DNA from: a virus
Length of the DNA stretch: 52,221 bases
Strand: one strand, 5' to 3'
Virus record (IMG/VR): IMGVR_UViG_3300029954_000016
Span: 1-52,221 of that record
This document shows, piece after piece, positions 31,041-47,454 of the stretch (position 1 is the stretch's first letter; each line of letters begins with the position of its first letter). The notes under the pieces were generated by a model. The model was not told the DNA's origin. It saw only the letters and a list, made by a program, of their open reading frames with translations, and made no database searches. The position numbers and the translations under genes were made by a program.

Positions 31041-31649
31041 ATGCACAACGGATTCAGCGGCACGTCGGCAGACGATCTGCCACCCAAAAGCCCCAGCCAC
31101 GCTGGCCAAGAACGAATGCATGTGACGACCACTGTCATGGCTCCGGCCATCGTGATCCGCGGTCTTCCAGGCGTTGGCAAGACTACGCTGGCAAACGAGA
31201 TCGTCCGTCAATTGAGGCGCGGTAGCTGCTCGATCGTCTACCCAGCATTCCACATCAACGCCGACGTGGTGCGGGCCAGGCTCAACAGCGACCTGGGCTT
31301 CAGTCCCGCTGCCAGAGTGGAAAACGCACGCCGTATTGGCGCCGTGGCGGCAATGGCCCGTATCAACGTCTGCGCACCTGTCATCGACTTCGTCATGCCT
31401 ACCGGCGAGACGCTCGATGCGTTCACCGATGGCTTCGGCGGGAAGGAGTTCTCTGTCTTCACGCTGAACGGGCCTGCCGATTTCGAGACCCGCTTCGCCG
31501 ACACCGGCAAGTTGTTCGAGACCGACCCCGTGACTCGTAGTACAAGGCACGGCCCAGCCGACCATCGTCAGTTCTACTCCCTCCAACCCTTCGGCCGCGG
31601 CGATGTTCAACTCATCGCTGAGACCATCATCCAGCAGGTGTTCAAATGA
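31041..31649 (+). CDS. P-loop kinase, APS-kinase-like, 202 aa
   Basis: Walker A GLPGVGKTTLANEI (about 40-53), then the APS-kinase-like run NADVVRARLNSDLGFS and ARVENARRIGAVAAM (about 71-104). The C-terminal half differs from true APS kinase (no clear lid or DPKGLY block) and contains DTGKLFETDPVTRSTRHGP. Two readings are possible: (i) a PAPS-forming kinase feeding the sulfotransferase; (ii) a 5-hydroxymethyl-dU(MP) or DNA base kinase, for which phage P-loop kinases of this type are known. Its 4-base overlap with the ThyA-family gene favours (ii); the sulfotransferase nearby favours (i). AGGAGG precedes ATG 31041. Confidence 0.7.
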   Translation: MHNGFSGTSADDLPPKSPSHAGQERMHVTTTVMAPAIVIRGLPGVGKTTLANEIVRQLRRGSCSIVYPAFHINADVVRARLNSDLGFSPAARVENARRIGAVAAMARINVCAPVIDFVMPTGETLDAFTDGFGGKEFSVFTLNGPADFETRFADTGKLFETDPVTRSTRHGPADHRQFYSLQPFGRGDVQLIAETIIQQVFK

Positions 31650-32794
31650 GCCAAGCTCCCGTTCTCGCCATCGCCCCGACCTCCGGTGCCGATTCCGCCC
31701 TCCGCCAAGCTGTCGAGATGGCGATCCAAGGTCGTCACACGATCGACATGCCGAGCCGCAACGGCCCGGTGCGCCGCTTCAACCGCCCGGTCGTCACGTG
31801 CTGGACCAACCCGGTGGATCGCATCGTCTGGTCGAAGACGCGCGACGTCAACCCGTTTCTGCACTTCATCGAAGCGGCGTGGATGCTTGCCGGCCGCAAC
31901 GACGTGGAACTCGCGGCGTACCTCGCCCCGAACATGAAGAACTACAGCGACGACGGCGAGACGCTGCACGGTGCCTACGGCTTCCGTTGGCGCGAGTGGT
32001 TCGGCTTCGATCAGCTGACCGCCATCATCGGCGAGCTGAAGACCAACCGCGAGACCAGGCGCTGCGTCCTGCAGATGTGGGACGGCCACGACGATCTGGG
32101 CACTGCGCTCAAGGGAGGACGCGATCTTCCTTGCAATACCGCGATCTACTTCGATCCGTGCGGCGACGAGCTGAACATGACTGTGACCTGCCGCAGTAAC
32201 GACGCGGTCTGGGGCTGCTACGGCGCCAACGTGGTCCACATGTCGATCCTCCACGAGTACGTGGCGGCCGTCACCGGCTTCAAGCTCGGCACCTACTACC
32301 AGATGTCGAACAACCTCCACTTCTACCTGGAAAACGATGTCACGAAGCGGGTGATGGACTACGAGAACGCGGACAACGACGTGCTCTCCAAGTGGGACCC
32401 GACGAACGCTGAGCAGCTCGGCAGTCCAGCCTTCCTCACCAGCTACGGATTCCCGGCATTCGGCGGCGAAACGCTGTTCCATGATCTGAACCCCGACCTC
32501 AGCGACGAGGTACTGGCTGACGCGCTGAACGACGCGTGCTCCACCTTCGTGGGCAAGGAGCTGGTCGGCATCAGCGACGGCGAGACCCACTACTTCAACG
32601 TCCTGCACGCGATGATGGACGGCTTCACCATCTACAGGACGCAGGGTGCGAACGCCGGCGCCGAGTACCTCGAGAGCTGTATGGTCCACAGCCAGTGGAT
32701 CCTGTCGGCCATCCTGTGGCTCAAGCGTCGTCCCAGCTACAAGGTGCCCGTGACCAGTGACACGAGCGGCAACCAGCCTGTGACGGGGGCGTGA
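31646..32794 (+). CDS. ThyA-family dUMP hydroxymethylase candidate (or thymidylate synthase), 382 aa
   Basis: ThyA-fold pyrimidine methylase. Blocks: RPVVTCWTNPVDRIVWSKTR and NPFLHFIEAAWMLAGRNDVE (N-terminal), RDLPCNTAIYF with the nucleophilic Cys (about 167-177), the LNMTVTCRSNDAVWGCYGAN (about 183-202) and QMSNNLHFYLEND (about 223-235). The Asn in YGAN (where dCMP enzymes have Asp) points to dUMP as substrate. The CRSNDAVWG-YGANVVHM form is that of phage hydroxymethylases more than of cellular ThyA (RS-D-FLGLPFN). It would make 5-hydroxymethyl-dUMP, the precursor of hypermodified thymine. Overlaps the kinase gene. Length (382) exceeds bacterial ThyA (about 264-315). Confidence 0.78.
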   Translation: MSQAPVLAIAPTSGADSALRQAVEMAIQGRHTIDMPSRNGPVRRFNRPVVTCWTNPVDRIVWSKTRDVNPFLHFIEAAWMLAGRNDVELAAYLAPNMKNYSDDGETLHGAYGFRWREWFGFDQLTAIIGELKTNRETRRCVLQMWDGHDDLGTALKGGRDLPCNTAIYFDPCGDELNMTVTCRSNDAVWGCYGANVVHMSILHEYVAAVTGFKLGTYYQMSNNLHFYLENDVTKRVMDYENADNDVLSKWDPTNAEQLGSPAFLTSYGFPAFGGETLFHDLNPDLSDEVLADALNDACSTFVGKELVGISDGETHYFNVLHAMMDGFTIYRTQGANAGAEYLESCMVHSQWILSAILWLKRRPSYKVPVTSDTSGNQPVTGA

Positions 32795-34449: not shown

Positions 34450-34740
34450 ATGAGCTGCGAATGCTACCCGCCTCTGAGGCCGATGTCTTCAGCACCGAAA
34501 GATGGTACTCCCATCCTGGCTTCATTTCCTACTAGTGACCACCCAAGATCAGACTTCGGTAGGAACGACGTGCGTGTTATCAGGTGGTCAGGATGGGGCG
34601 GTGGAGTCTGGGACAATGACAGCGGGCATCATCTCAGTGGTGAAGATCCAATCGGTTGGCGCCCACTTCCGCCTGCTGAAGTGGGCTACTGGCAAATATC
34701 CGCCGACAGTCCCTACACGAAGACTTGGGTCAAGACCTGA
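34450..34740 (+). CDS. Small phage protein, 96 aa (DUF551-like pattern)
   Basis: Start taken at ATG 34450 (MSCECYPPLRPMSSAPKDGT) behind AAGGAACACC; the frame opens at a GTG (34432) overlapping the HD gene stop. The PMSSAPKDGTPILASF ... GGGVWD ... PIGWRPLPPAE layout resembles the small Trp-rich DUF551-type proteins in many phages, which have no known function. A hairpin follows the stop. Confidence 0.6.
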   Translation: MSCECYPPLRPMSSAPKDGTPILASFPTSDHPRSDFGRNDVRVIRWSGWGGGVWDNDSGHHLSGEDPIGWRPLPPAEVGYWQISADSPYTKTWVKT

Positions 34741-34749
34741 GCACAACGG

Positions 34750-34782
34750 AACGGCACCCATCGTGATTGATGAGGTGCCGTT
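34750..34782 (+). terminator. 9-bp hairpin followed by a T-rich stretch
   Basis: AACGGCACC (34750-34758) pairs perfectly with GGTGCCGTT (34774-34782), followed by GTTCGTCTTGGG. It lies 10 bases after a stop codon and 56 before the topoisomerase start, so it probably ends the upstream transcript. A second small palindrome GGGGAATCCCC (34799-34809) lies just before AATTTTATG. Confidence 0.55.
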
Positions 34783-34837
34783 GTTCGTCTTGGGACCGGG
34801 GAATCCCCAATTTTATGCCAACGTGCAAGGACCCAAG

Positions 34838-36472
34838 ATGGAAAACGAACTCCAAGTCTACAAGCTGAGTGCCAGTCAGCTAACCAATCTGCTGCAGATC
34901 CTCGGTGCTCTCGTGGCCGACTACATCTCGAACCCAAATGGGCCGATGGACGCGAGTCTTCGGCCCTATGTCAGGACTGTCCTCGACTGGAAAGCCCTTC
35001 CGGGACTCAAGCCAGCGATTGCGGCCTGCATAAAGGGTGGGGACAAGCTGGAAGCGCTGGTCGAGCTCGGCAACGAGCTGAAGGCGGCGATGCCCGGCTT
35101 CAAGAACAACCGTGCCTTCACGACGCCCGAGCTGACGATGCTTCGCGCGCTCCGTGTCTACTTGAGCACCGACAGCGAGCCGGCCCTCAACTACATCCGC
35201 AAGAACGCGAGTGTGTTCGGATCACCAGAGCTCGCCGCCGTCTTCCTGCCTCCGATCCCGAAGGCGGACAACAAGGCGCTGCGTCGTGCCGTCCAGTCGC
35301 TCGTCGGCCGTGACGGTACTCACCTGACGAAGACCGAGTCGGACATGCTGAAGGAGACGAACCCCGATCAGCACGGGAAGTACGTCCAGCTGCGCAAGGC
35401 CCACAACGCCGAGTTCAAGGCCACGGTCACGACCTACGTCCGTCAGTCGGGTAAGGACAAGGTCCCGTATCAGCAGCTCTACAAGTACATCGTGGGACAG
35501 GGTTTCACCCACTCACTGGTTCCCGGCTTCACTGGACTTGTGGACGACCAGGGGAACTGGTACACCGACAAGGGCGAGAAGATCGGTGGCGTCCCCAACC
35601 TGCAGACCTACACGCACGTCGTCATGAACGACGGCAAGGATCCGGAAGCCAACTGGGTCTTCAAGGCGTTCAAGGCTGACGGCGGTTACGCCTACGCATA
35701 TACGGCGAACTTCCGTCGTGACCAGTCGAGCGCCAAGTACGAGCACGTCGCCGAGCTGATGGAGAAGATCCCCGCGATCCAGGCCGCGTGGCGCAAGAAG
35801 ATCAAGGCGTTCAATCCGGCTGACAGGCAGTGCGTGAGTGCTGTCATCCTCGAGATCCTCTTCACCTACGCTGCCCGCATCGGTTCGGCTCCTGGTCGTG
35901 GAGCCGGCACCCTCCTCGTGAAGAACGCAAGCATCACGCAGCAGGGCGTCAACCTCGCCTACATCGGCAAGGACTCGATCCCCACCAAGCACATCATCCG
36001 CAGCGCCGACGGTCCCTACAGCGCGATGGTCGTCAAGGCGCTGAAGGGCATGATCGAGGGCAAGAAACCGAGCATGTGGCTCTACACCACGGTCAGCCCG
36101 AACGGGAAGCTGACACGCGTCGGCCCCGCCAACGTCAACGGTGCGTTCCACGCCTTCGGTGCGCCAGAAGGTGTGTCGGTCCACAAGTTGAGGACCGTGC
36201 GGGGAACAACTCTGTTTCACCAGCTGATGGAAGACGACGCTAAGAGACGGCCACCGGCGACGGAGAAAGAGGCCATGAGTCGCTACAACGAGATGACGGC
36301 CAAGGTTGGCAAGCTCCTGAATCACAAGCGCGGAGTTGGTACCGACCACGAAAGCGTGACGGGGACCACGGCAGCGGGATCCTATATCGACGGTGACATC
36401 CAGTGCGAATTGTGGGAGCGATGGGGATTTAGGCCTCCGGTCTTTCTTGAGAAACTCCTAGCTGGTGGGTGA
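34838..36472 (+). CDS. Type IB DNA topoisomerase with recoded 3' end, 544 aa
   Basis: Start taken at ATG 34838 (MENELQVYKLSASQLTNLLQ) behind AAGGACCCAAG; the longer frame runs through the terminator. The C-terminal ~260 residues match poxvirus-type topoisomerase IB: AARIGSAPGRGAGTLLVKN (catalytic Arg about 347), YIGKDSIPTKH (Lys), KLRTVRGTTLF (about 449-459, second Arg) and TTAAGSYIDGDIQ with the likely nucleophile Tyr516. It relaxes supercoils through a 3'-phosphotyrosine. The N-terminal ~180 residues are not recognised. The final codons (RWGFRPPVFLEKLLAGG) are AT-rich and recoded, and a diverged second copy of the same ending lies 156 bases downstream. Confidence 0.75.
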   Translation: MENELQVYKLSASQLTNLLQILGALVADYISNPNGPMDASLRPYVRTVLDWKALPGLKPAIAACIKGGDKLEALVELGNELKAAMPGFKNNRAFTTPELTMLRALRVYLSTDSEPALNYIRKNASVFGSPELAAVFLPPIPKADNKALRRAVQSLVGRDGTHLTKTESDMLKETNPDQHGKYVQLRKAHNAEFKATVTTYVRQSGKDKVPYQQLYKYIVGQGFTHSLVPGFTGLVDDQGNWYTDKGEKIGGVPNLQTYTHVVMNDGKDPEANWVFKAFKADGGYAYAYTANFRRDQSSAKYEHVAELMEKIPAIQAAWRKKIKAFNPADRQCVSAVILEILFTYAARIGSAPGRGAGTLLVKNASITQQGVNLAYIGKDSIPTKHIIRSADGPYSAMVVKALKGMIEGKKPSMWLYTTVSPNGKLTRVGPANVNGAFHAFGAPEGVSVHKLRTVRGTTLFHQLMEDDAKRRPPATEKEAMSRYNEMTAKVGKLLNHKRGVGTDHESVTGTTAAGSYIDGDIQCELWERWGFRPPVFLEKLLAGG

Positions 36473-36650: not shown

Positions 36651-37151
36651 ATGACCAACATCCAACTCCAAGCCAAGCAACGCCTCGGCACCAGCATCAA
36701 GGCTGCCGACCTGAAACAGGGCAAAGCATTCCTCGAGAAGATGCTTGCCAAATACGTGGGTGAATTCAGTCCGAAGGTCAAAGTGACAAAACCACACGGT
36801 GATGACGCAACCTTCGCTGGCATGTTTGTACTCACTTTCCAAGTCGGAGAGCAGGGATGTGAATTTCGACTCGAATTGGGGCAGCCACAGAACACGAAAC
36901 TCAAGTCCAACGTCGCTCTGTATCTCTTCGCTTACGATAGTCCTTCCGTTACGATGGTGTTCGAAGATTCGTTGGGCAGTCGCGATGATATCGTAGATGC
37001 CAAGAGTGTCAAAGAATTCAACAAGATCGCTCTTCACGCGATGGCCGTTGGCAAATTCCTCGTAGGGTTCGGCAAGTTCCTGGATGCTTTGTTCGCGGTC
37101 TCCCAAAAGAACGATCCGAAGACAGACCCGTGGGCTGATGGTGACAACTAG
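36651..37151 (+). CDS. Tagged protein 1: hypothetical, 166 aa
   Basis: Start taken at ATG 36651 behind AAGGAACTTAC. Begins MTNIQLQAKQRLGTSIKAAD, the shared N-terminal tag (core L-Q-A-K-Q-R-L). The body is alpha/beta (AFLEKMLAKYVGEFSPKVKV; MFVLTFQVGEQGCEFRLELG) with a helical C-terminus and is not recognised. Codon use in the body is AT-richer than the tag region, as if a standard tag had been joined to a foreign gene. Probably packaged in the head if the tag is a targeting signal (inference). Confidence 0.65.
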   Translation: MTNIQLQAKQRLGTSIKAADLKQGKAFLEKMLAKYVGEFSPKVKVTKPHGDDATFAGMFVLTFQVGEQGCEFRLELGQPQNTKLKSNVALYLFAYDSPSVTMVFEDSLGSRDDIVDAKSVKEFNKIALHAMAVGKFLVGFGKFLDALFAVSQKNDPKTDPWADGDN

Positions 37152-37159
37152 GACGCATC

Positions 37160-37642
37160 ATGAAACTCGAAGCCAAACAGCGTCTCCTCGCTGCAGGACT
37201 CAAGCCGGTGAACTGGCGCCGACCCACCTCCAAGGAACTGGCGTTCGAGTACAAGGTCGAGTACGCGCTACCTCAGCGCCGCTGGGATCAACGTGCGAAG
37301 TCGATCGGTGCTCCCTACCCGATCTTCACGTCGGAGGGCGACTTCATCGCGAAGATGGGACAGGCTATAGAGTACCACATCCCGATTCAGGCTTTCCACA
37401 CGGTCAACAACCTGACCCTCTGCCGCTCCATCCGCGAGCTGAAGGACCTGGTGGGGAGCTACTCATTCCCACGTGACGTCGACTCGCTGATCCGAGGCTT
37501 TGAGTCCGGTGCTAAGATGCCGCTACCGATTGTGGTAGGAGGCTCCAAGGGAAGCTGGATCCTTGGGGGCAACACCAGACTCAACGTTGCGGCCATCCTC
37601 GGCTACGAGACCAAGACCCTTCTCTACACGGCAACACCATGA
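37160..37642 (+). CDS. Tagged protein 2: ParB/sulfiredoxin-like domain, 160 aa
   Basis: Begins MKLEAKQRLLAAGLKPVNWR (tag core L-E-A-K-Q-R-L). The C-terminal part PLPIVVGGSKGSWILGGNTR then LNVAAILGY resembles the ParB N-terminal/sulfiredoxin-like fold (P-I-V ... GNTRL-A---LG), used in DNA-binding or nuclease proteins of phages. The central part (YPIFTSEGDFIAKMGQAIEY) is unknown. It overlaps the next tagged gene (ATGA). Domain call moderate; packaging inferred. Confidence 0.6.
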   Translation: MKLEAKQRLLAAGLKPVNWRRPTSKELAFEYKVEYALPQRRWDQRAKSIGAPYPIFTSEGDFIAKMGQAIEYHIPIQAFHTVNNLTLCRSIRELKDLVGSYSFPRDVDSLIRGFESGAKMPLPIVVGGSKGSWILGGNTRLNVAAILGYETKTLLYTATP

Positions 37643-38598
37643 TCAAGATCCAGGCCAAGGCACGTCTTATTGCAGGACGGCCGATGCTGTCTCAACTGCA
37701 GAAGATGACACGGGACCAGCTCTATAGCCTGGAGATCGGGATCCAAGGCATTTGTGATTGGTATCAAGGTCACTACATCGGCCTTGGTGTGAAGACCGAT
37801 CTGCTGATTGAGGCTCAAGCCAGTCAGCAGAGCTTCACGTACCTAGTCAATGCCATGGCCTGGCTCTCGAAGTACTTCGCCCCTAAGTCGGTGCAAGACT
37901 ACGAGTACGCATACCGTCTGCACGATTCGGCTGAAGACCACATATCTCCTGATGAAAAGACCGTGACGGTCAAGCCCTTCAAGCCGATTCTCAGCTGGAG
38001 CACCAAGCCTGACATTTATATCGATGAGCGAACTCCACAGCCTCATGATCTGGTATTGAAGTTGGCACATCCACGCGTTCTCTTCAGTCCTACAACTGCC
38101 GAGCGCCTGGACATCACAGGTCTTCAGGAGTCCAACAATCGGCAGATCGTCGAGATCGGTGTCGCTTGTGCTCGACTCAAGGGTGTCTGCGCTGGCTATC
38201 GTGATGAGAACGAGATTGTAGTCTGGCACGGGACCGCTCCCTTCCAGGCTGAAATCCTAGAAGATCGCCGTCCTGCCTCTGTTGGTGGACCGCTCGATCG
38301 TGGTGCCCAGGCTTTGGCAAAGTACGACATCCCAGTCAAGATCAACGAGTTTGAGGTGTACGACTTCAGCGAGCTGACTCAGCAATTCGAGGGCTACACC
38401 GCCGTCAACCTATACAAGGCCGTGCACGAAAGCCTTGGTGATCCGACGCGGGTCGTTCCGCAGGCGAGTGACAAGACGCTCAAGAACGAGGTATGGGATC
38501 TCGGTGACGTGACCTTCACCCTGTGCATGCTTCAGGCTCCGATCAAGAGCAAGTCACTCCTCAACTTCGAGATCAAATTCCCAAAGGTGACCAAGTGA
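37639..38598 (+). CDS. Tagged protein 3: ADP-ribosyltransferase-like, 319 aa (paralogue A)
   Basis: Begins MIKIQAKARLIAGRPM (tag core I-Q-A-K-A-R-L). It carries the R-S-E triad pattern of mono-ADP-ribosyltransferases in the right order and spacing: R93 in AYRLHDS, S119-W-S121 in PILSWSTKP, and E190-N-E192 in DENEIVVWHG. The next gene is a clear paralogue (KYFAPKSVQ, PFKP-LSWS, E-E-VVWHGT-PF). T4 Alt, a head-packaged and injected ADP-ribosyltransferase that modifies host RNA polymerase, is the obvious analogue. Family assignment is from motifs only and the target is unknown. Confidence 0.6.
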   Translation: MIKIQAKARLIAGRPMLSQLQKMTRDQLYSLEIGIQGICDWYQGHYIGLGVKTDLLIEAQASQQSFTYLVNAMAWLSKYFAPKSVQDYEYAYRLHDSAEDHISPDEKTVTVKPFKPILSWSTKPDIYIDERTPQPHDLVLKLAHPRVLFSPTTAERLDITGLQESNNRQIVEIGVACARLKGVCAGYRDENEIVVWHGTAPFQAEILEDRRPASVGGPLDRGAQALAKYDIPVKINEFEVYDFSELTQQFEGYTAVNLYKAVHESLGDPTRVVPQASDKTLKNEVWDLGDVTFTLCMLQAPIKSKSLLNFEIKFPKVTK

Positions 38599-39599
38599 CT
38601 GACCCGACTAAGATTGAGGCCGGCATCCAAATGCTGCCTGTCATCAACAAGATGTCGATCGACCAGATCAAGACTCTGACCCAAGGCGTCTACGCGATCC
38701 GCGAGTGGTATAAGGGCGAATGGGTTGGCGACAGCGCGAAGGGAGAGATCCTGGTTGGCGCGGTCCCAAAGTTCCAACTGGCCCTCAACGCCATGGTCTG
38801 GCTCACGAAATACTTCGCGCCCAAATCGGTCCAGGGTTTCAAGACCGTGTACCGTGTGCACGATGCTAAGAAAGACAAGATCAGTAAGGATGGTGACCGC
38901 ATCAAGGTCACACCGTTCAAGCCGATGCTTAGCTGGAGTGCCACCCCATTCATCGTTGTGAAGGCTCGAGAGTCGAAAGCCGAAGACGTGGTCATTGGCC
39001 TGGTAAACCCGAAGGTGATCTTCAGTTTCTTGACCCCAGGTCGCCTTGAATTCGAGTCCCTTGCAGAAAGCAAGAACGAACAGCACAAGAATCTCTACCG
39101 AGCCTTGGTCTCATTGCGGTCTATTGCCCGCGACTACAAGTCCGAAGAGGAGGTCGTGGTTTGGCATGGAACCAAACCGTTTGAGGCCGACATCATCGAA
39201 AGTCGCAGTCTGTCGACACTCACCAAGCGCACACAGGGTGTCCTGAAATCCCATGGACTCGGCGCGCTTGGTGGCAAGCCAGATCGTGTCGGGAGCCACA
39301 CCATCGGCTTCTACTACAAAGGCCCAGCCGCTGTGCCCACCGTCCAGAAGGTGACGAAGCAGCTCGGTGCCCCGACCAAGACCGAGAAGAAGGGCGCGCT
39401 TGCAGGCCACCAGCCGTATCAGATCGCGATTTGGCGATTTGGTGACTACGAGATCAGCATCCGCTACCGAGCGGCTTACAGGAAGATGGTGAAGTTCAAC
39501 TCCTGGAAGTACAAGTCCATCCAGTCCAAACTCCAGATTTATCCAGCGACGTGTAGCCTCTGGATCACCTTCCCAAAACCGAAGCCGACCAAGAAGTAG
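38595..39599 (+). CDS. ADP-ribosyltransferase-like, 334 aa (paralogue B), GTG start
   Basis: Start taken at GTG 38595 (MTDPTKIEAGIQMLPVINKM), overlapping the upstream stop, with AAAGG nearby. The same triad is visible: R87 in VYRVHDA, S113-W-S115 in PMLSWSATP, and E184-E-E186 in SEEEVVVWHG. Aligned with paralogue A, the tag core A-K-x-R-L is absent or eroded (KIEAGIQML), so B may be made in the infected cell rather than packaged, much as T4 has Alt (packaged) and ModA/ModB (made early). This comparison is inference. It ends with a basic tail (FPKPKPTKK). Confidence 0.6.
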   Translation: MTDPTKIEAGIQMLPVINKMSIDQIKTLTQGVYAIREWYKGEWVGDSAKGEILVGAVPKFQLALNAMVWLTKYFAPKSVQGFKTVYRVHDAKKDKISKDGDRIKVTPFKPMLSWSATPFIVVKARESKAEDVVIGLVNPKVIFSFLTPGRLEFESLAESKNEQHKNLYRALVSLRSIARDYKSEEEVVVWHGTKPFEADIIESRSLSTLTKRTQGVLKSHGLGALGGKPDRVGSHTIGFYYKGPAAVPTVQKVTKQLGAPTKTEKKGALAGHQPYQIAIWRFGDYEISIRYRAAYRKMVKFNSWKYKSIQSKLQIYPATCSLWITFPKPKPTKK

Positions 39600-39608
39600 G
39601 AGGCCACT

Positions 39609-40874
39609 GTGCCGCTCATCGATCGCCGCTCTCCCCTCACCCCTGCGAATGCCCGCAATAGTGATGTTGCCGCGCGCTTGACGGAGGACATTGCACCGAT
39701 CCAGCAACAAAAAATGATTTCGGCCTTTAGGGTGCAGGGCATCGAAGCCATCCTCTACAACCGACTCGGTCAGGGCGTGGTCTGCAGTTGCAAGAGCCAG
39801 GAGCACCAGGTCACGGATCGCACTGGCGGTGCCCAGAAGACGGGACCCGGTGCCACCAACAGTGCGCAGACTGGTGAGGCCAAGTTCGGGGTCGGTTCGT
39901 ACAGTCCTCTGACGCCGGACCAGGAGTTCGACGACCTGGACAACTTCCACGACGCGGAGACCAGCCCGACCAACGCGCTGTCCAAGTGGATGGGAGACCT
40001 GACGACCGCGGGTTCCACCGACGGTCCGGGCGTCAACCTCGTCACTGACCAGGTGATCACCACGGAGAAGGGTCAGTTCAGCCCTGACCTGGAGGACATC
40101 TTCAGCCAGTTCGATCTGGGCTCCATCGGCTTCAGTGACGTGAGTTGCGCCTGCTGCTTCGGCACCGGCTTCATCGGTGGCTACTCGCAGTTCCGTGGCT
40201 GGCGTCACGTCGTGGCGGCTACTCAGCTCGTCACGCAGTCGACTCTGGACCTGACGACGGCTCCGCTGGCGATGCGACCCGGTGTCCACACCTTCACCAC
40301 CGTCCTCCCCTTCGGCGCCTTGGTGCTAGACGTGTTCCGTCCGATGAACGGTGACAAGGTGGTCCAGGCCCGCATCTTGATCGACGGCGTCGACACGGCG
40401 AACAAGCGCGTCCTCAACTGGTTTGACGGCAAGCCCCACGTCGTCACCGTGGAGACCGACAGCTTGATGACCCACTTCGAGATGCAGGCGGCGACTAACA
40501 CGGATCCCGTGTACTTCGAGCTCCCGAAGCGGAACCGCACGCAGGACATCGCGCTGCTGGAAAAGCAGGAGCCGTTCCAGATCATCCTGAGCCCCGAATG
40601 CCCGCGCGTCGACACGCTTGACCTCATTGCCGAGTCGCAGATGGGCAAGCTGCTCATCGTGCAGAACGTGAACCCGTGGCAGACCCGGAACCGCAACTTC
40701 CTGGGTCAGGAGATCCAGGTCCGCGTGGCCCAGCCTGCTGAGCTCTGGCAGGTGATGCCGCGTCGTCGTCACGTCGCTGGCCAGAAGACGGTCAACGTGG
40801 CACGACAGGCCCAGGCCAAGAACCAGGGCGGCGTCAGCGCTGGCCCTGGCGACGGCAACAGCTTCAACTTCTGA
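39609..40874 (+). CDS. Probable virion structural protein with Cys-rich insert, 421 aa, GTG start
   Basis: GTG 39609 follows TAGGAGG. The middle holds CSC (59-61) and, about 120 residues later, SCACCFGTGFIGGY, so four or five cysteines could bind zinc. The C-terminal half is beta-rich (GVHTFTTVLPFGALVLDVFR, KPHVVTVETDSLMTHFEMQA) like baseplate or tail proteins. A Gln/Gly-rich tail ends NSFNF. The gene sits among tagged genes and before other virion-type genes. Structural role inferred from composition and context; no specific match. Confidence 0.5.
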   Translation: MPLIDRRSPLTPANARNSDVAARLTEDIAPIQQQKMISAFRVQGIEAILYNRLGQGVVCSCKSQEHQVTDRTGGAQKTGPGATNSAQTGEAKFGVGSYSPLTPDQEFDDLDNFHDAETSPTNALSKWMGDLTTAGSTDGPGVNLVTDQVITTEKGQFSPDLEDIFSQFDLGSIGFSDVSCACCFGTGFIGGYSQFRGWRHVVAATQLVTQSTLDLTTAPLAMRPGVHTFTTVLPFGALVLDVFRPMNGDKVVQARILIDGVDTANKRVLNWFDGKPHVVTVETDSLMTHFEMQAATNTDPVYFELPKRNRTQDIALLEKQEPFQIILSPECPRVDTLDLIAESQMGKLLIVQNVNPWQTRNRNFLGQEIQVRVAQPAELWQVMPRRRHVAGQKTVNVARQAQAKNQGGVSAGPGDGNSFNF

Positions 40875-40890
40875 CTCCAAGGAAAAGAAC

Positions 40891-41289
40891 ATGGACATCC
40901 AACTCCAAGCCAAGCATCGCTTGCTCGCTACAGCCGGCAAACCTACGATCGGCAAAGCTGAGTTTCAGAAATTGGAGACACAGCTCACTCAACTTCTGGG
41001 AGGTGAGCCCAGGCCGATATGGCCAGAGCGCCCTCTCTACATAGCCTGGGACAAGAAAGTCGCGCCGTCTCTGAACTCCCAGACGAACAAGACGGTAAAA
41101 GATTTCATGGTCTCCAACGAGTTCGCGGCTCGCCTCTCCAAACTTCTTCAATGCGAACCTAACGCAGAAAAGTTCAATCCAACCTACAGGTACCTCCACT
41201 GGTCAGGTAATGGATGGGAGGTGACCTGGAACGGCAACGGCAGAAGTGTCACTTTGGACGGATACACAGACGGACTCTGGAAAGAGTGA
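40891..41289 (+). CDS. Tagged protein 4: hypothetical, 132 aa
   Basis: Begins MDIQLQAKHRLLATAGKP (tag core L-Q-A-K-H-R-L). The first 20 or so coding bases are nearly identical to those of the 36651 gene (shared CATCCAACTCCAAGCCAAGC). The body is unrelated: a basic helix (KTVKDFMVSNEFAARLSKLL) and a Trp-rich C-terminus (YLHWSGNGWEVTWNGNGRSV). AAGGAAAAGAAC precedes the start. Function unknown. Confidence 0.65.
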   Translation: MDIQLQAKHRLLATAGKPTIGKAEFQKLETQLTQLLGGEPRPIWPERPLYIAWDKKVAPSLNSQTNKTVKDFMVSNEFAARLSKLLQCEPNAEKFNPTYRYLHWSGNGWEVTWNGNGRSVTLDGYTDGLWKE

Positions 41290-41294
41290 GAATC

Positions 41295-41960
41295 ATGGAC
41301 ATCAAGCTCCAAGCCAAGCAGCGGCTCAGCGCCGGCGGCATGAATCCCGTGAACCCTGCTCCGACCTTCACTCCTCAGATCTTCATGCCCGAACGCCTCG
41401 TCATGCTCGATTGTGAGATGACGGGGCTCGACGTGCCGAAGGACGACCTGATCCAGATCGCTGCACTGAAGCTCGAGCTGCAAGGCATGAGCTACGTGCA
41501 GACGTCGGATCCGGAGTTCAACATCTTCCTGCACACGGACCAGGTGCCGAAGTCGGACTTCGCTCGTCAGCACTTGAGCGACATCTACCGCAAAGCCAAC
41601 GCCTCCAAGATCAACTACGTCGAGGCCCACAAGCTGTACAACGACTGGCTCGGTGATTGGCGGGGCAAGGTCAGTCCATGTGGAGACTGCGTTCCCACCG
41701 ACATCATGTTTATGTTCGCAAAGGGCGTGATCACCCTCAGTCACTACGATGGTGACACGCCGGTGGATGGCTCGCACTACTACGAGTTTTTCGATATGAA
41801 CTCGATCAAGGCAGTGGCACGCCAGAAGGCGGGGACCAAGTTCGATCGCCAGGTTCCACGCATTCCTGGCGACCACGACGCGCTGGTCGACTGCAAGAAC
41901 CAGCTCGCCGAGATGAATGCCATCATTGCGATGCTGTTGTCCGAGGGGATTCCGCGATGA
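41295..41960 (+). CDS. Tagged protein 5: oligoribonuclease-like DEDDh exonuclease, 221 aa
   Basis: Start taken at ATG 41295 (MDIKLQAKQRLSAGGMNPVN), five bases after the upstream stop. After the tag comes ERLVMLDCEMTGLDVPKDDL (about 34-53), the exonuclease I motif D-x-E of Orn-type enzymes, then QIAALKLELQ, a PTDIMF segment and GDHDALVDCKNQLAEM (about 194-209) with the H-x-x-x-x-D ending. These enzymes degrade short RNAs or single-stranded ends. Adding a head-targeting peptide to a nuclease fits an injected effector (inference). Overlaps the next tagged gene (ATGA). Confidence 0.75.
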   Translation: MDIKLQAKQRLSAGGMNPVNPAPTFTPQIFMPERLVMLDCEMTGLDVPKDDLIQIAALKLELQGMSYVQTSDPEFNIFLHTDQVPKSDFARQHLSDIYRKANASKINYVEAHKLYNDWLGDWRGKVSPCGDCVPTDIMFMFAKGVITLSHYDGDTPVDGSHYYEFFDMNSIKAVARQKAGTKFDRQVPRIPGDHDALVDCKNQLAEMNAIIAMLLSEGIPR

Positions 41961-42520
41961 AGCTCGGTGCCAAGGCCAGGCTCCTGTCGGCCTTCAACGG
42001 AGCGGTCCGCCAGTTCTACGAGCGCATCGCCAAACAGGTTGCAGGAACCGCAGCTCCTAGCGGTCGAACCGACTGCCGTGCCACCGTCGGTCAAGCAATC
42101 AAGGACCGCAAGGTTCAACCCGATGACCTAATTGTGGTCGTCGGTGATAATGACGACGGGGTTCTGCACGCGGTGCACACCTTCGTCACCAGTCCACAAC
42201 ACAAGATCCTTGCTGACGCCCGTACGGACGGACAGTGGGACGGCGAGACATACACCTCCGGGCTTGGTGGCGGTTCGTCCCTCACCAGGTTGGGTTCCAT
42301 GACGATCTCTGCCTTCGAGTCTCAGTATGTCCACGCTGCTCTCCTCGCTTCTTTCGACCCTAGCACGGCCCACGGTCACGTGGTACCTCGCCCCGATGGC
42401 CTGCGCGCTAAGTGCGGCGGCCTTCGTAGCGTGCTCGGGTGCACCATCTGCGCTCGTGAGGAGCAACTCCTCGCTGCTGGCGCTCATCCCCTGAACCTGA
42501 ATCCCAAGGAACCGACATGA
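41957..42520 (+). CDS. Tagged protein 6: hypothetical, 187 aa
   Basis: Begins MKLGAKARLLSAFNGAVRQF (tag core L-G-A-K-A-R-L). The body has a LIVVVGDNDDGVLHAVHTFV strand-loop-strand, a Gly-rich segment (YTSGLGGGSSLTRLGS) and two cysteine pairs (AKCGGLRSVLGCTIC). Its last residues (EEQLLAAGAHPLNLNPKE) resemble the second half of the tag (LLAAG-x-x-P-x-N in the 37160 and 41295 proteins). Function unknown. Confidence 0.6.
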   Translation: MKLGAKARLLSAFNGAVRQFYERIAKQVAGTAAPSGRTDCRATVGQAIKDRKVQPDDLIVVVGDNDDGVLHAVHTFVTSPQHKILADARTDGQWDGETYTSGLGGGSSLTRLGSMTISAFESQYVHAALLASFDPSTAHGHVVPRPDGLRAKCGGLRSVLGCTICAREEQLLAAGAHPLNLNPKEPT

Positions 42521-43686
42521 CCGATCCCAAGAAGTTCCGCTCGATGGAAGACGTCAAGCGCTTCCTCGCCGAACAGAGCAACGAGATGGATCTCGAGCGC
42601 CAGCTCGTCGACCACGGCCTGACACAGATGGCCAAGATGGTCAAGGCTGCCCCGACCCAGGTCATGGACTTCAGCGGCGGTGGCAAGGGCGGCCGCGTCA
42701 AGCGCACGTCGAACATCGACTTCCCGGTCGTGAAGGTGCCGAACATCCAGCAGTTGAAGGAGCACTACGCGCAGGCTGAAAAGCTGAGCGAAAGGTACAA
42801 GTACATCACGAACACCGAGAACGAGTTCAAGATGAACTTCGCCGGTGAGAAGGGGGGCAACTTCGACCAGGTGATCGGCAGTTTCCAGAAGCTGAAGGGC
42901 GAGATCGAGGCCACGCTGAAGGATTTGTTCCAGGCGCTGGGCCAGGTCGCCGAGGGCCACGCCCCGCCCGAGTACAAGAAATTCGTCCAGGCCCTGGCCG
43001 ACGAGATCGAGGCCAACCGTCACATCGAAGCTGACGGCCTGCAGACGATGACCTACGCCGCCCTGTCGAAAGACGGGGAGCTGATCTTCGCCGGCTACAT
43101 CATCCTGATCAACGCTGTGAACGACCAGCAGAAGGTACTGCCTCACCTCTACATCACGATCAAGTGGACGGTTGGTGCCAATGTCGAGCTCTTCATCGAG
43201 CACGAGTTCGTCGCACCGACCCTTCTGCACGACGGCGTGACCATCGACAGCCTGAAGAGCGCAGCCCAGGCCATCGCCAGCCAGATGGCGCTCGAGGGCT
43301 TCAGCTCCCAGATCGGCAACCTCCCGGTCGCTATGCAGATCCGCGAACCGAACGGTGGCCTGCGCCGCGAAGCCTTCTCGGCCAAGGACTGGATCAAGGA
43401 CGTGACGGCCGAGGCCGACGAGCTGAAGTTCGTGCTCACCACTGCCGATCCGCGCAAGGTCGAGGAGGTGCAGAACCAGATCTACATGGAGCTGCGTGCC
43501 CTTCTGAAGCGCAAGCGCAGCACCACGATCCGTGCCCGCCACGTCGAGAACATCGTCACCTTCACGTTCTCCAACCTCGAGCACGGCGACGGTCTACACC
43601 CTAGTGACCTCAGCTGGTTGGAAGATAAGTATGGTTTGGACCAACAGAAACTGCGCCGGCTGGTCAACGTCATCAACGGAGATTGA
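42517..43686 (+). CDS. Probable virion or internal protein, coiled-coil N-terminus, 389 aa
   Basis: ATGA overlap with the previous gene. N-terminal ~150 residues are helical and heptad-like (KRFLAEQSNEMDLERQLVDH; QLKEHYAQAEKLSERYKYIT). The centre is beta-rich (LPHLYITIKWTVGANVELFI), and the C-terminus holds a basic helix and IVTFTFSNLEHGDGLHPSDL. It lacks the tag. The regular high-GC codon use suggests a core phage gene. No family recognised; structural role is a guess from size and context. Confidence 0.5.
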   Translation: MTDPKKFRSMEDVKRFLAEQSNEMDLERQLVDHGLTQMAKMVKAAPTQVMDFSGGGKGGRVKRTSNIDFPVVKVPNIQQLKEHYAQAEKLSERYKYITNTENEFKMNFAGEKGGNFDQVIGSFQKLKGEIEATLKDLFQALGQVAEGHAPPEYKKFVQALADEIEANRHIEADGLQTMTYAALSKDGELIFAGYIILINAVNDQQKVLPHLYITIKWTVGANVELFIEHEFVAPTLLHDGVTIDSLKSAAQAIASQMALEGFSSQIGNLPVAMQIREPNGGLRREAFSAKDWIKDVTAEADELKFVLTTADPRKVEEVQNQIYMELRALLKRKRSTTIRARHVENIVTFTFSNLEHGDGLHPSDLSWLEDKYGLDQQKLRRLVNVINGD

Positions 43687-43688
43687 CA

Positions 43689-44231
43689 ATGGGCCAAGTC
43701 CTCACTGCGGAGGACCTGAGCTCGTACACGGGGCGTCTCGTCCAGCAGTTGCACCTGCTCGGTGAAGGCTCCTTCGCCCAGGTGTTCCAGCATCCGACTG
43801 ACCCCAACATGGTGGTCAAAGTGTTTGCCGACGATCCGGTCTACCTTCAGTACGTAAACTTCTGTCAGCGGAACCCGAACAACCGATGGCTCCCAAAGGT
43901 GATGGAGCTGCATCGCCTTGACATCGATGGACGTGACGACGTGTGGGCCGTGTTCATGCCCAGGCTTCGGCATGCGACTCAAGCCCAGGTAAATCAGGCC
44001 TTCGCCGGACTGGTGCCATGGTTGCCAGAGGTGAATAAGGCATTCTCCGAGCGGAAGCGCCTGTCGTTCCCGCAGTGGCGGATCCTCGTCCGTATGGCAG
44101 ATGATCCGGATACCAAAACCATGGCCACTTGGATGTGGCGTCACTTCAACCGCCTCGACCTGCTGAGGCAGAACTTCATGATGCGAGATGATCAGGTCGT
44201 ATTCAACGATCCAGTCGCCTCCAAGGAGTAA
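43689..44231 (+). CDS. Protein-kinase-fold-like protein, 180 aa
   Basis: Start taken at ATG 43689 (MGQVLTAEDLSSYTGRLVQQ) behind GGAG. N-lobe-like features: LLGEGSFAQVFQHP (Gly-rich loop, about 20-33) and MVVKVFADD (Lys, about 40-48). Near the C-terminus DLLRQNFMMRDDQVVFNDP resembles the catalytic D-x4-N and the D-P version of DFG seen in phosphotransferase-type kinases. It is short (a full kinase is about 250) and the C-lobe is reduced, so it may be a minimal or inactive kinase. Target unknown. Confidence 0.5.
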   Translation: MGQVLTAEDLSSYTGRLVQQLHLLGEGSFAQVFQHPTDPNMVVKVFADDPVYLQYVNFCQRNPNNRWLPKVMELHRLDIDGRDDVWAVFMPRLRHATQAQVNQAFAGLVPWLPEVNKAFSERKRLSFPQWRILVRMADDPDTKTMATWMWRHFNRLDLLRQNFMMRDDQVVFNDPVASKE

Positions 44232-44235
44232 TGAC

Positions 44236-44943
44236 ATGATCAACAAGAATGGCGCCAAGACGCGTCTCACAGCCGGCATTGGACAACGTCTGAGCCCAGA
44301 AGCTGTGGCCCAGGAGGCTGCCGTGACTCACGGGGATCTCATTCGCTTCCTGAAAGATAAACTGAGTGCGGCCCTACGCCCAGACGCAATGGAGCGGATG
44401 CTGAACCGCAAGTACGGGGATGGGTCCATGAGCCCGAACCCAAGGCACGAGGACACGGCGATGGAAGAGCCTGTGACGGCATCCATTCCTCAGCAGATGC
44501 TGCTCGACGCGTACAAGCGTAGCCTCAAGGCCGGCCGCTCCACCGGCACCGCAGCCGGTGCCCTCTTCTACGCGAAGGACACGGGCCGCTTCCTCTTCGT
44601 CAAGCGTAGCGACCGCGGTGACTGCGCTGGCACCTGGGGTGTCCCTGGTGGCGGCGTCGAGGACTTCGAGACCATCGAGGAGGCGGTTCGGCGTGAAGCC
44701 GACGAGGAGGTCGGCTACAACGAGCCCTACGACCTGATCCACATGCACCGCGACGTGCAACCGGACGGCTTCACCTTCCACAACCACATGGCGGTCGTGC
44801 CAAACGAGTTCGAGCCCAGGCTCAACGACGAGCACACGGCCTACGTCTGGTCGGAAGAGATGCCGGAGCCGATGCATCCCCGCCTCGCCCTGTCGATCGA
44901 TGCCTGGTCCCAACGCAACAGGCAAGACAATCCCCAAGCCTAG
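44236..44943 (+). CDS. Tagged protein 7: Nudix hydrolase, 235 aa
   Basis: Start taken at ATG 44236 (MINKNGAKTRLTAGIGQRLS) behind AAGGAGTAATGAC; the tag core is G-A-K-T-R-L. The Nudix box is complete: G-GVEDF-E-TIEEAVR-RE-A-D-EE-V-G (about 143-165), within GTWGVPGGGVEDFETIEEAV. Nudix enzymes cleave NDP-X compounds such as ADP-ribose, NADH, dNTPs or RNA caps. The ~85 residues between tag and Nudix domain are unknown (contains RFLKDKLSAALRPDAMERML). If injected, it could remove ADP-ribose or nucleotide signals early in infection (inference). Confidence 0.85.
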   Translation: MINKNGAKTRLTAGIGQRLSPEAVAQEAAVTHGDLIRFLKDKLSAALRPDAMERMLNRKYGDGSMSPNPRHEDTAMEEPVTASIPQQMLLDAYKRSLKAGRSTGTAAGALFYAKDTGRFLFVKRSDRGDCAGTWGVPGGGVEDFETIEEAVRREADEEVGYNEPYDLIHMHRDVQPDGFTFHNHMAVVPNEFEPRLNDEHTAYVWSEEMPEPMHPRLALSIDAWSQRNRQDNPQA

Positions 44944-44950
44944 GTCTCCC

Positions 44951-45964
44951 ATGCTCACGCTCCAGGAAGTCACCTCGTTGCTCAAGCGCTTCTCCTTTGA
45001 AGGACTGTCCCTGATCAGCATGGACGAGGAGAAGCTGACGTACAACTTCAAGTTCACGTCGTTCAACCCGGTCCTCATGCCCGTCAAGCCCACGGTGGCA
45101 GCGGGTGGCAAGGTCCTGGTGTTCACGGTACCAGACGTCGGCAAGTTCGGGGTCAGTCCGGCGAACTTCATGGTCCGCTACGTGGATAGCGGACTCAGGC
45201 ACGGTACCTCGTCCAGCGTGCCAGAGGGTCACCTGACAAAGCAGGAACTGCCAGCCGACCTGGTTCTCGCCTACCAGAAGGCAGTGGTGAACAGTGGCCA
45301 GCGCGTTGCCTTTGTCACCAAGCTCTGGCACCACTTCAACACAACGAAATTCAGCGGACAGATGCAGGTGCCGAAGCTCGAGGTCAGCTCTCATCCATCC
45401 TTCGGTGGGGTAGCCAAGTCAACCCGTGGTGCGTTCCTTGGTGATCCCGGCTGGCATCCAGGCCGCCTCTGGATGGCGAGCTTCATGTTCAACAGCCGGA
45501 TCGCCTTCTTCTGTGAGGTGTTCCTACACGAGATGTGTCACCTCGCTGCCTGGTGTCTCAGTTGCAGCGACGACTTCAGTGAGGGTGGACACGGTCCAGT
45601 CTGGCAACAGTGGATGACACACGTCGGTCTAGATCCTCGCCGCTTCGACCCGACCGACGACTACGAGTACCAAGATGATGCACAACGTCAGGCCACCGAG
45701 GTGAGTCTGACCCAGCAGTACGGCCCACGGTCGCCGTCCAAGGACGTGAAGGCTCTAAAGAAGATGAAGGGCTTGGAGCCTGGCCCAGCGATCTACCTGC
45801 AGATGGGTCGCATCTTGCACGGCACCATCGGTCTTCACAACGGCCGCAGTCCTTACTTCGAGTACAAGAACAAGGCTGGCGGTACGATGTTCATGTCATG
45901 GCCTGACGCAGCGAACTTCGCACGTCAGGGCCTCCCCAACCTCTATCATGAGACCGCAAAATGA
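44951..45964 (+). CDS. SprT-like zinc metalloprotease, 337 aa
   Basis: Start taken at ATG 44951 (MLTLQEVTSLLKRFSFEGLS); the longer frame overlaps the Nudix gene. The zinc site HEMCHLAAW (about 195-203) is followed by GGHGPVWQQWM, the typical SprT/Spartan-like HExxH...HG-x-W ending. The N-terminal half (about 1-110) and the C-terminal ~100 residues are unrecognised; the C-terminus has beta-hairpin-like repeats (GPAIYLQMGRILHGTIGLHN). SprT-type proteases cleave DNA-bound or structural proteins; a role in the phage particle or in clearing DNA-protein crosslinks is possible. It overlaps the next virion gene (ATGA). Confidence 0.75.
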   Translation: MLTLQEVTSLLKRFSFEGLSLISMDEEKLTYNFKFTSFNPVLMPVKPTVAAGGKVLVFTVPDVGKFGVSPANFMVRYVDSGLRHGTSSSVPEGHLTKQELPADLVLAYQKAVVNSGQRVAFVTKLWHHFNTTKFSGQMQVPKLEVSSHPSFGGVAKSTRGAFLGDPGWHPGRLWMASFMFNSRIAFFCEVFLHEMCHLAAWCLSCSDDFSEGGHGPVWQQWMTHVGLDPRRFDPTDDYEYQDDAQRQATEVSLTQQYGPRSPSKDVKALKKMKGLEPGPAIYLQMGRILHGTIGLHNGRSPYFEYKNKAGGTMFMSWPDAANFARQGLPNLYHETAK

Positions 45965-47454
45965 ATCTCTACGTATTCACCAAAGATGCGGGGGACATCC
46001 AGAATCAGCTGACCCCGGTTCTCAACGCAGGCGAGACCGTGACGGGCATCACAATCGATCCGGTGACGCCGGCCGACACGAATGCCCCAACACTCACGAT
46101 CTCGAGCGGAGTTGCGGTCCCGATCATGTTCAAGGTTACGGGCGGCAGCACCGGCATCACCTACGGTTTCCCTCTCAAGATCCAGACCGATCAGCGCCTG
46201 TTCGTCATCACGGTGGCGGTCAATGTGCTGTCCGACGCGCTGGCTCCCTACACGAATGCCGATCCGGACTCGTACCAGGACCTCGTGGGTTCGATCCAGG
46301 CCGGCAAGACTGCAATGGCCAAGATGATCATGACGTTCCCGCCCAGCTTCGATCCGAGCGGGGGCTACGTCGTGTGGGACATCCTCGATGCGACTGGCAC
46401 GATCTACGCCAGCGGCAACGCTTTCGACTACAAGATCGTGGCCAGTGGGATCGCCAATACGGTGATCGCACGGAGTTTGATCAACGTCCCGTCCAACATC
46501 CCCCCGAGTCCGGACAATCCGTACCAGCTCCGCTACACGGTGACCATCGGTCAACAGATCTTCCCGTACTATGAAAGTCTGCAAGTCGATGGCCTAGTCG
46601 CCATGCAACTCGGGGCACAGGATCAGGTCGAGCTGCTGAACGATCCGGCTACGATGAGCCTGGTCACTGCATCCCTGTACCAGAACTACGTGCTTGAACT
46701 CTACGCTGATGGGACGCTCATCGCATCAATGGCTGCACAGCCGGGCGAACAGGTGGTCGGCGGCTACTACGTGGCGGGCACCATCGACACGAGTCAGCTC
46801 GTTGCCAGCACAGAGCCCTACCAGGTGATCTGGAAGTTTTGGAACAATGCGACGGCGAACCAGGTCTTCCGCGAGGGCTGCGCCCTGTGGATCGTCACTT
46901 CTTCTATGGTCCAGGCCATCGAGGACGTGAAGTCCAAGGTCAACAAGGCCCGTCAGACTCTGTACGGGACACCCGACTCGCAGTTCCCCAGCACCGAGAT
47001 CATGAAGTGGCTCCGCCGTGGCAAGGACGCGTTCAACGGCTGGGGTGGCCAGTTCACTAGTTTCACCATGACGAATGCCAAGGGCGTGGTTCGTGAATAC
47101 TGGCTTCTCTGCGCTGAGAAGTCGGCGCTTGAGGCCCAGTACATGCTTGAAGGTGAGAAGGCCTTCAACTTCAGTGGTGCGGCCATCAGTCTCGATGTGG
47201 ACCGGACCTCTTACTTGGACAACCTGGCGTCCAAGATCCAGTCCGACCTCGACACCAACTTGACCAACATAAAAAAGAACCTCATCATCAAAAATCAGAT
47301 CTCTGGTGATGGGTCGAGTGCGACCGGAGATGGGAATTTCTCTGCCCTGAACGGCCTTGGTGCCATCGGGTCTGTCGGCGTCACCATCACGCCAGTCTCT
47401 CTGTACGGCTCCGGCCTTGGGGTCTACGGCTGGAACTACGCAGGGATCTTGTGA
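45961..47454 (+). CDS. Probable virion structural protein with Ig-like domains, 497 aa
   Basis: N-terminal ~300 residues show repeated beta-sandwich signatures (TGITIDPVTPADTNAPTLTI; VVWDILDATGTIYASGNAFD; YVLELYADGTLIASMAAQPG), like tail/baseplate or decoration proteins. The region 310-410 is helical (AIEDVKSKVNKARQTLYGTP, IMKWLRRGKDAFNGWGGQFT), and the C-terminus is Gly/Ser-rich. ATGA overlap with the protease gene. No specific family recognised. It ends 6 bases before the GTAAATA motif, so it closes this transcription block. Confidence 0.55.
   Translation: MNLYVFTKDAGDIQNQLTPVLNAGETVTGITIDPVTPADTNAPTLTISSGVAVPIMFKVTGGSTGITYGFPLKIQTDQRLFVITVAVNVLSDALAPYTNADPDSYQDLVGSIQAGKTAMAKMIMTFPPSFDPSGGYVVWDILDATGTIYASGNAFDYKIVASGIANTVIARSLINVPSNIPPSPDNPYQLRYTVTIGQQIFPYYESLQVDGLVAMQLGAQDQVELLNDPATMSLVTASLYQNYVLELYADGTLIASMAAQPGEQVVGGYYVAGTIDTSQLVASTEPYQVIWKFWNNATANQVFREGCALWIVTSSMVQAIEDVKSKVNKARQTLYGTPDSQFPSTEIMKWLRRGKDAFNGWGGQFTSFTMTNAKGVVREYWLLCAEKSALEAQYMLEGEKAFNFSGAAISLDVDRTSYLDNLASKIQSDLDTNLTNIKKNLIIKNQISGDGSSATGDGNFSALNGLGAIGSVGVTITPVSLYGSGLGVYGWNYAGIL

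What the first reader, a model, noticed from the sequence alone, without database searches (positions are those of the whole stretch)
37639..39599. Tandem ADP-ribosyltransferase-like paralogues, one tagged and one not
Both proteins keep an R...S-W-S...E-x-E pattern with matching surroundings (YR-HD, PFKP-LSWS, E-E-VVWHGT-PF) and are clear duplicates. Only the first carries the A-K-x-R-L N-terminus. This parallels T4 Alt (packaged) against ModA/ModB (made after infection), reached here apparently by a different family.
Basis: partly seen in the sequence, partly recalled or inferred. Interest (0 to 1): 0.75.

Follow-up and report, generated by a model that had tools for sequence, protein, structure and literature searches.

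The report
Tandem tagged and untagged phage ADP-ribosyltransferases
A large uncultured phage carries, among its particle-building genes, two neighbouring copies of an undescribed enzyme family that very probably attaches ADP-ribose to host molecules, and only one copy begins with a short tag that this phage group puts on many different proteins, probably to load them into the virus particle.

Summary
Two adjacent overlapping genes (37639-38598 and 38595-39599, +) encode paralogues 34% identical over 290 aa (E 1e-58). Only the first starts with the A-K-x-R-L tag. No Pfam, PHROG or PDB sequence model matches them. A scan with the neighbouring SprT gene found ten more family members in related phages, including three tandem copies in Achromobacter phage Motura. 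In a ten-row alignment the near-invariant residues include R93, S119, E190 and E192, the R-S-ExE ADP-ribosyltransferase (ART) signature; one homologue lost all of them together. An AlphaFold model of the first protein (pLDDT 81) gives the ART fold: all 25 structures with Z of 2 or more are ARTs (best Z 5.5). The tag is a real clade-wide N-terminal element (73 of 687 ORF starts against 2 expected), on proteins encoded near virion genes, and it comes and goes on orthologues. Packaging of the tagged copy is therefore likely but unshown. The Alt-versus-ModA/ModB analogy is weak for timing, because the untagged copy sits in the same operon-like run and overlaps the tagged one. This is a new ART family in a known kind of phage host-takeover system.

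The parts
37639..38598 (+). ART copy 1 (319 aa), tagged; ART domain about residues 12-216, C-terminal domain about 220-319
37639..37677 (+). N-terminal tag MIKIQAKARLIAG of copy 1; residues 1-11 predicted disordered
   Evidence: sequence; pLDDT under 50 for residues 1-11; clade-wide enrichment
37915..37917 (+). R93 of copy 1, strand 90-96 (predicted NAD-binding Arg of R-S-E)
   Evidence: near-invariant; DSSP of model
37993..38001 (+). S119-W-S121 of copy 1 (S-x-S motif), strand 117-121
38206..38214 (+). E190-N-E192 of copy 1 (E-x-E motif), at the start of strand 192-196
38595..39599 (+). ART copy 2 (334 aa, GTG start behind AAAGGTG), untagged; R87, S113-W-S115, E184-E-E186
   Evidence: residue numbers counted from the sequence
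36651..37151 (+). Tagged neighbour (MTNIQLQAKQRL), unknown function
37160..37642 (+). Tagged neighbour (MKLEAKQRL), weak PHROG match, ParB-like by eye (GGNTRLNVA)
39609..40874 (+). Conserved gene (phrog_21298), homologue in the Motura late block at 146.5-147.7 kb
40891..41289 (+). Tagged neighbour (MDIQLQAKHRL)
41295..41960 (+). Tagged DnaQ-type exonuclease (MDIKLQAKQRL)
41957..42520 (+). Tagged neighbour (MKLGAKARL); its HGHVVPRPDGLRAKCGG motif is also found fused behind the degenerate ART in L056
43683..44231 (+). Kinase-like, untagged here but tagged in L070
44236..44943 (+). Tagged Nudix hydrolase (MINKNGAKTRL)
44900..45964 (+). SprT-type metalloprotease, untagged here, tagged in several relatives
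45961..47454 (+). Head-tail connector family (phrog_17327), places the gene run among virion genes

Best explanation
The two genes are tandem duplicates of a previously unnamed family of R-S-ExE ADP-ribosyltransferases, encoded with virion proteins by a Motura-like jumbo phage. Shown: the duplication, the family, the conserved triad, a predicted ART fold, the operon-like layout, and the clade-wide N-terminal tag. Inferred: both are made late; both split NAD+ and transfer ADP-ribose to a host macromolecule, probably onto arginine because of the E-x-E motif; copy 1 is loaded into the particle through its disordered tag and injected to act at once, as T4 Alt does; copy 2, apparently translationally coupled to copy 1, either acts in the producing cell late in infection or enters the particle by another route, for example together with copy 1.
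For: Paralogues E 1e-58. Family alignment with R93, P116, S119, E190 and E192 near-invariant. Row L056 replaces R with A, S with C and E-N-E with D-Q-I. Pair against Motura group by hhalign: E 8.4e-7, motifs co-linear. Model pLDDT 80.8, pTM 0.78, with R, S and ExE on the expected strands. All 25 PDB rows with Z of 2 or more are ARTs. BFVD: Motura homologues first at 1e-7 to 2e-6, a phage ADP-ribosylase at rank 12. Tag enrichment. Head-tail connector gene in the same run and shared genes with Motura's late block. Overlapping starts and stops. Packaged ARTs are common in large phages (PMC9503650).
Against: The best structural Z is modest (5.5), and plain Foldseek against PDB gives no significant hit. 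No Pfam or PHROG ART model matches. No virion proteomics or expression data exist here, so packaging and timing are inferred. One family member (L056) has lost the triad.
Confidence: 0.6

Rival explanations
1. Both are active ARTs, but the tag is not a packaging signal. It directs proteins to another place, such as a replication compartment, an assembly site or a protease, and the tagged/untagged difference says nothing about injection.
For: The tag is on enzymes of many kinds and comes and goes on orthologues. No tagged protein was shown to be in a virion. The literature searched gave no described tag of this kind.
Against: Tagged genes lie beside virion genes in the window and in Motura. A short, disordered, portable N-terminal peptide on varied enzymes is what a capsid targeting signal looks like by analogy with the T4 capsid targeting sequence (own knowledge; reviews listed were not read).
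Confidence: 0.3
2. The proteins have an ART fold but use NAD+ differently, as NADases, or modify DNA, RNA or a nucleotide rather than protein arginine.
For: The target cannot be read from sequence. Phage ARTs include NADase and RNA-repair types (PMC9503650), and T4 ModB attaches RNA to proteins (PMC10468400).
Against: E-x-E rather than Q-x-E is typical of arginine-specific enzymes (established knowledge, not tested here).
Confidence: 0.3
3. The pair are structural or inactive proteins that only kept the ART fold.
For: The L056 homologue has lost R, S and E; the genes are among virion genes.
Against: Both window copies and the other members keep the triad while overall identity to copy 1 falls to about 20%, which points to selection on catalysis.
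Confidence: 0.08
4. Not an ART; the R, S-W-S and E-x-E matches are coincidence.
For: No sequence-level match to any annotated ART.
Against: The structural comparison returned only ARTs among rows with Z of 2 or more, and the motif residues are the conserved ones.
Confidence: 0.03

Closest known systems
Achromobacter phage Motura QDH83611, QDH83613, QDH83614 (hypothetical proteins)
   Same: Homologous by profile comparison (E 8.4e-7); close together in the late block near SprT; keep R, S-F-[SA], E-x-E; all start with the tag or a close variant of it.
   Different: Three copies, all tagged; other C-terminal regions; ART domain 18-23% identical to copy 1.
T4 Alt (packaged and injected ART)
   Same: ART carried in the particle and injected (PMC10468400; annotation); the tagged copy is proposed to work likewise.
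   Different: No significant sequence match; Alt is a 682 aa protein, here a 319 aa protein with a ten-residue tag; packaging not shown here.
T4 ModA and ModB
   Same: Tandem overlapping paralogous ARTs; triad motifs align in register.
   Different: Alignment score not significant (hhalign E 0.34); ModA/ModB are early genes (PMC10468400), whereas here one of the pair is tagged and both sit with virion genes.
VIP2, Vis, VahC, SpvB and C3-type ART domains (solved structures)
   Same: Predicted fold of copy 1 matches them with Z 4.6-5.5 over 126-144 residues.
   Different: 8-15% identity; these are bacterial toxins or effectors; no evidence of any action on eukaryotic cells here.
MuF-, portal- and polyvalent-protein-fused phage ARTs (PMC9503650)
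   Same: ARTs encoded with head genes and thought to be injected.
   Different: Delivery there is by fusion to head proteins or large polyproteins; here by a short portable tag, if the tag is for packaging.

Membership tests
ADP-ribosyltransferase superfamily, R-S-E clade | ART fold (split beta-sheet around an NAD cleft) | tested here: met
   AlphaFold model pLDDT 80.8; all 25 PDB rows with Z of 2 or more are ARTs, best Z 5.5, rmsd 4.5 over 144 residues. Moderate Z, predicted model.
ADP-ribosyltransferase superfamily, R-S-E clade | Arg on first core strand, S-x-S on second, E-x-E at fifth | tested here: met
   R93, S119, E190, E192 near-invariant and on or next to strands 90-96, 117-121, 192-196
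ADP-ribosyltransferase superfamily, R-S-E clade | R, S and E side chains line one NAD pocket | not tested
ADP-ribosyltransferase superfamily, R-S-E clade | NAD+ binding and ADP-ribose transfer | not testable with these tools
   needs biochemistry
Pfam PF03496 (ADPrib_exo_Tox) | Match to the family HMM | tested here: not met
   No match in G000 at E up to 10, while the same search found one in phage PhiXhv-15
T4 Alt / ModA / ModB families | Significant sequence similarity | tested here: not met
   hhalign E 0.34 against a T4 Mod/Alt alignment, although the motifs are in register
T4 Alt-like packaged ART | Present in the virion and injected | not testable with these tools
   only context: tag, virion-gene neighbourhood
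T4 ModA/ModB-like early ART (for copy 2) | Expressed early after infection | tested here: inconclusive
   Copy 2 overlaps copy 1 in one run of genes that includes a virion gene, with no promoter-like site of its own on this strand; no expression data
Motura-type tagged ART family (this report) | Profile-level homology plus location in the SprT/connector late block | tested here: met

The most novel reading that the evidence does not exclude
A clade of jumbo phages uses one short portable N-terminal peptide (M-x-[IL]-x-A-x-x-R-L-x-A) to load a changing toolkit of enzymes, including ARTs, Nudix hydrolases, exonucleases, kinases and SprT proteases, into the particle for injection. Gene duplication followed by tag loss then splits one ART into an injected form and a form that stays in the producing cell.
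Probability: 0.35. Interest if true: 0.75.

Novelty: new variant of a known kind. Interest (0 to 1): 0.5.

Why it matters
It adds an ART family, invisible to the Pfam and PHROG models used here, to phage host takeover, with a cultured relative (Motura) in which it can be tested. The tag gives a direct, cheap hypothesis: if tagged proteins are found in particles, the injected protein repertoire of a whole phage clade can be read from genome sequence alone.

Tried and rejected
Direct searches with copy 1, copy 2 or the pair found nothing in viral contigs, phage records, bacterial genomes, Pfam, PHROGs or PDB sequences; only the detour through the SprT neighbour worked. A first fold with a two-row alignment failed for the ART part (pLDDT 41.7); in it only the C-terminal domain was confident, and its best structural match is weak (DUF4309 protein YjgB, Z 5.4). 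The pair HMM alone did not separate the Motura protein from shuffled sequence; homology became clear only with group profiles. Related jumbo phages NCTB, PaBG, PhiXhv-15, Lu11, HRDY3 and RHEph12 have no family member, and NCTB and PaBG show no tag enrichment. A chance or DNA-level origin of the tag was rejected: enrichment is over 30-fold in the SprT loci and synonymous codons differ between copies. I searched the literature for a described tag of this kind and found none, which is not proof of absence. The PF03496 protein of phage PhiXhv-15 did not match this family's profile and was left aside.

Full report
What is there. The window is a 52,221-base IMG/VR virus record from a jumbo-phage relative: it encodes a family A DNA polymerase, a topoisomerase IB whose best named relative is in Achromobacter phage Motura, and a ribonucleotide reductase. 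Copy 1 runs 37639-38598. Copy 2 most likely starts at GTG 38595 behind AAAGGTG and runs to 39599. They are 34% identical over 290 residues, E 1e-58. Copy 1 begins MIKIQAKARLIAG; copy 2 begins MTDPTKIEAG and has no tag.

Finding the family. Sequence searches with either copy found nothing. I therefore aligned the neighbouring SprT metalloprotease with its Motura counterpart and scanned viral contigs, which gave 25 loci of related phages. In these and in Motura I found further family members: L056, L072, L061, three in Motura, two in L065 (found again in L066), one in the contig of L068 (L084) and one in the contig of L071 (L097). A profile of the window pair against the Motura group gives E 8.4e-7 with all motifs co-linear. 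In a tree of the 12 members the window pair groups with L056, the Motura copies with L072, and the two L065 copies with L097, so copies appear to have multiplied separately in at least two or three lineages. The tree is small and several nodes are open, so this is a tendency rather than a result.

Why it is an ART. In the ten-row alignment the near-invariant columns are R93, P116, S119, E190 and E192, plus the leucine of the tag; Y92 and L142 are invariant along with the start methionine. That contains the R-S-ExE signature. The one exception, L056, has replaced R with A, the first S of S-W-S with C, and E-N-E with D-Q-I, so the residues are lost together, as expected if they act together. The AlphaFold model of copy 1 residues 1-217 has mean pLDDT 80.8 and pTM 0.78, with R93 on strand 90-96, S119 on strand 117-121 and E192 at the start of strand 192-196. 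Among 878 aligned PDB chains, all 25 entries listed with Z of 2 or more are ADP-ribosyltransferases, led by VIP2 (5.5), VahC, Vis and a Listeria ART-ARH pair (5.4). The Z values are modest and plain Foldseek is not significant, but no unrelated fold competes. In predicted viral structures the Motura homologues come first, then a fourth Motura protein, and a phage ADP-ribosylase appears at rank 12. Against T4 ModA/ModB/Alt the profile score is not significant (E 0.34), yet the arginine, serine and glutamate motifs align in register with ModA.

The tag. The pattern M-x(0-6)-[LIVM]-x-[AGS]-x-x-R-L occurs at 73 of 687 ribosome-binding-site-preceded ORF starts in the SprT loci against 2.0 in shuffles, at 17 of 440 in Motura against 1.2, and is not enriched in PaBG or NCTB. 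It starts seven proteins in the window. Synonymous codons differ between copies, which suggests selection on the protein. In copy 1 residues 1-11 are predicted disordered. Tagged genes lie close to a head-tail connector gene in the window, and in Motura mostly in the minus-strand block that also holds the major capsid and tail tube genes. Orthologues differ in whether they carry it: of the kinases compared only that of L070 is tagged, and SprT is tagged in L061, L062, L067, L068 and L073 but not in the window or Motura. This is what a portable targeting peptide would do. That the target is the virion is inference.

How it probably works, and the T4 analogy. Large phages often encode ARTs near head genes, and these are thought to be injected (PMC9503650). 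T4 injects Alt, and makes ModA and ModB from early genes (PMC10468400; annotation). By analogy the tagged copy would be injected and would modify host targets at once. The untagged copy, however, starts inside the stop of the tagged one and the whole run from 36651 to 47454 is closely packed; the only promoter-like site found between 36300 and 41400 is on the other strand. It is thus expected at the same time as its neighbours, unlike ModA and ModB. In Motura and L065/L066, where several copies exist, all are tagged; three members (window copy 2, L056 and L061) lack the tag. A division of labour between an injected and a resident form is therefore possible but not shown.

Verdict. New family within a known kind of phage host-takeover enzyme. 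The ART identity is well supported, packaging is likely but unshown, and the early/late division with ModA and ModB is not supported.

Noticed in passing
window 36651-45000 and loci L056-L073, L019, L020: A clade-wide N-terminal tag (M-x-[IL]-x-A-x-x-R-L) on many unrelated proteins, 73 of 687 ORF starts against 2 expected in the SprT loci.
   Followed up: partly
L056:5887-7251: Family member that has lost R, S and ExE together and is fused to a C-terminal domain with the HGHVVPR-DG-RAKCGG motif that is a separate tagged gene at 41957-42520 of the window.
   Followed up: partly
Motura QDH83630 (L020:4669-5187, - strand) and QDH83626 (L020:3059-3580, - strand): Two more tagged Motura proteins that look ART-like: one matches the model in BFVD (E 1.1e-3), the other begins after its tag with YHGTT and matches Arr weakly.
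   Followed up: partly
L070:3441-3944: Tagged protein beginning FYRGL after its tag, possibly another ART type.
   Followed up: no
window 34502-36472: Eukaryotic-type topoisomerase IB, 38% identical to Motura's.
   Followed up: no
window 28218-30154 and 31646-32794: phrog_9677 and sulfotransferase-like (phrog_3347) genes and a thymidylate synthase upstream of the virion block.
   Followed up: no
window 38320-38598 and 39235-39599: C-terminal domains of the two ARTs are shared only by this pair in the sequences held; a weak structural match to DUF4309 (YjgB) was seen.
   Followed up: partly
L003 (IMGVR_UViG_3300028562_000004): A 45 kb contig whose end encodes residues 1-401 of the window's topoisomerase at 100% identity, apparently the same or a very close virus, ending before the ART genes.
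   Followed up: no
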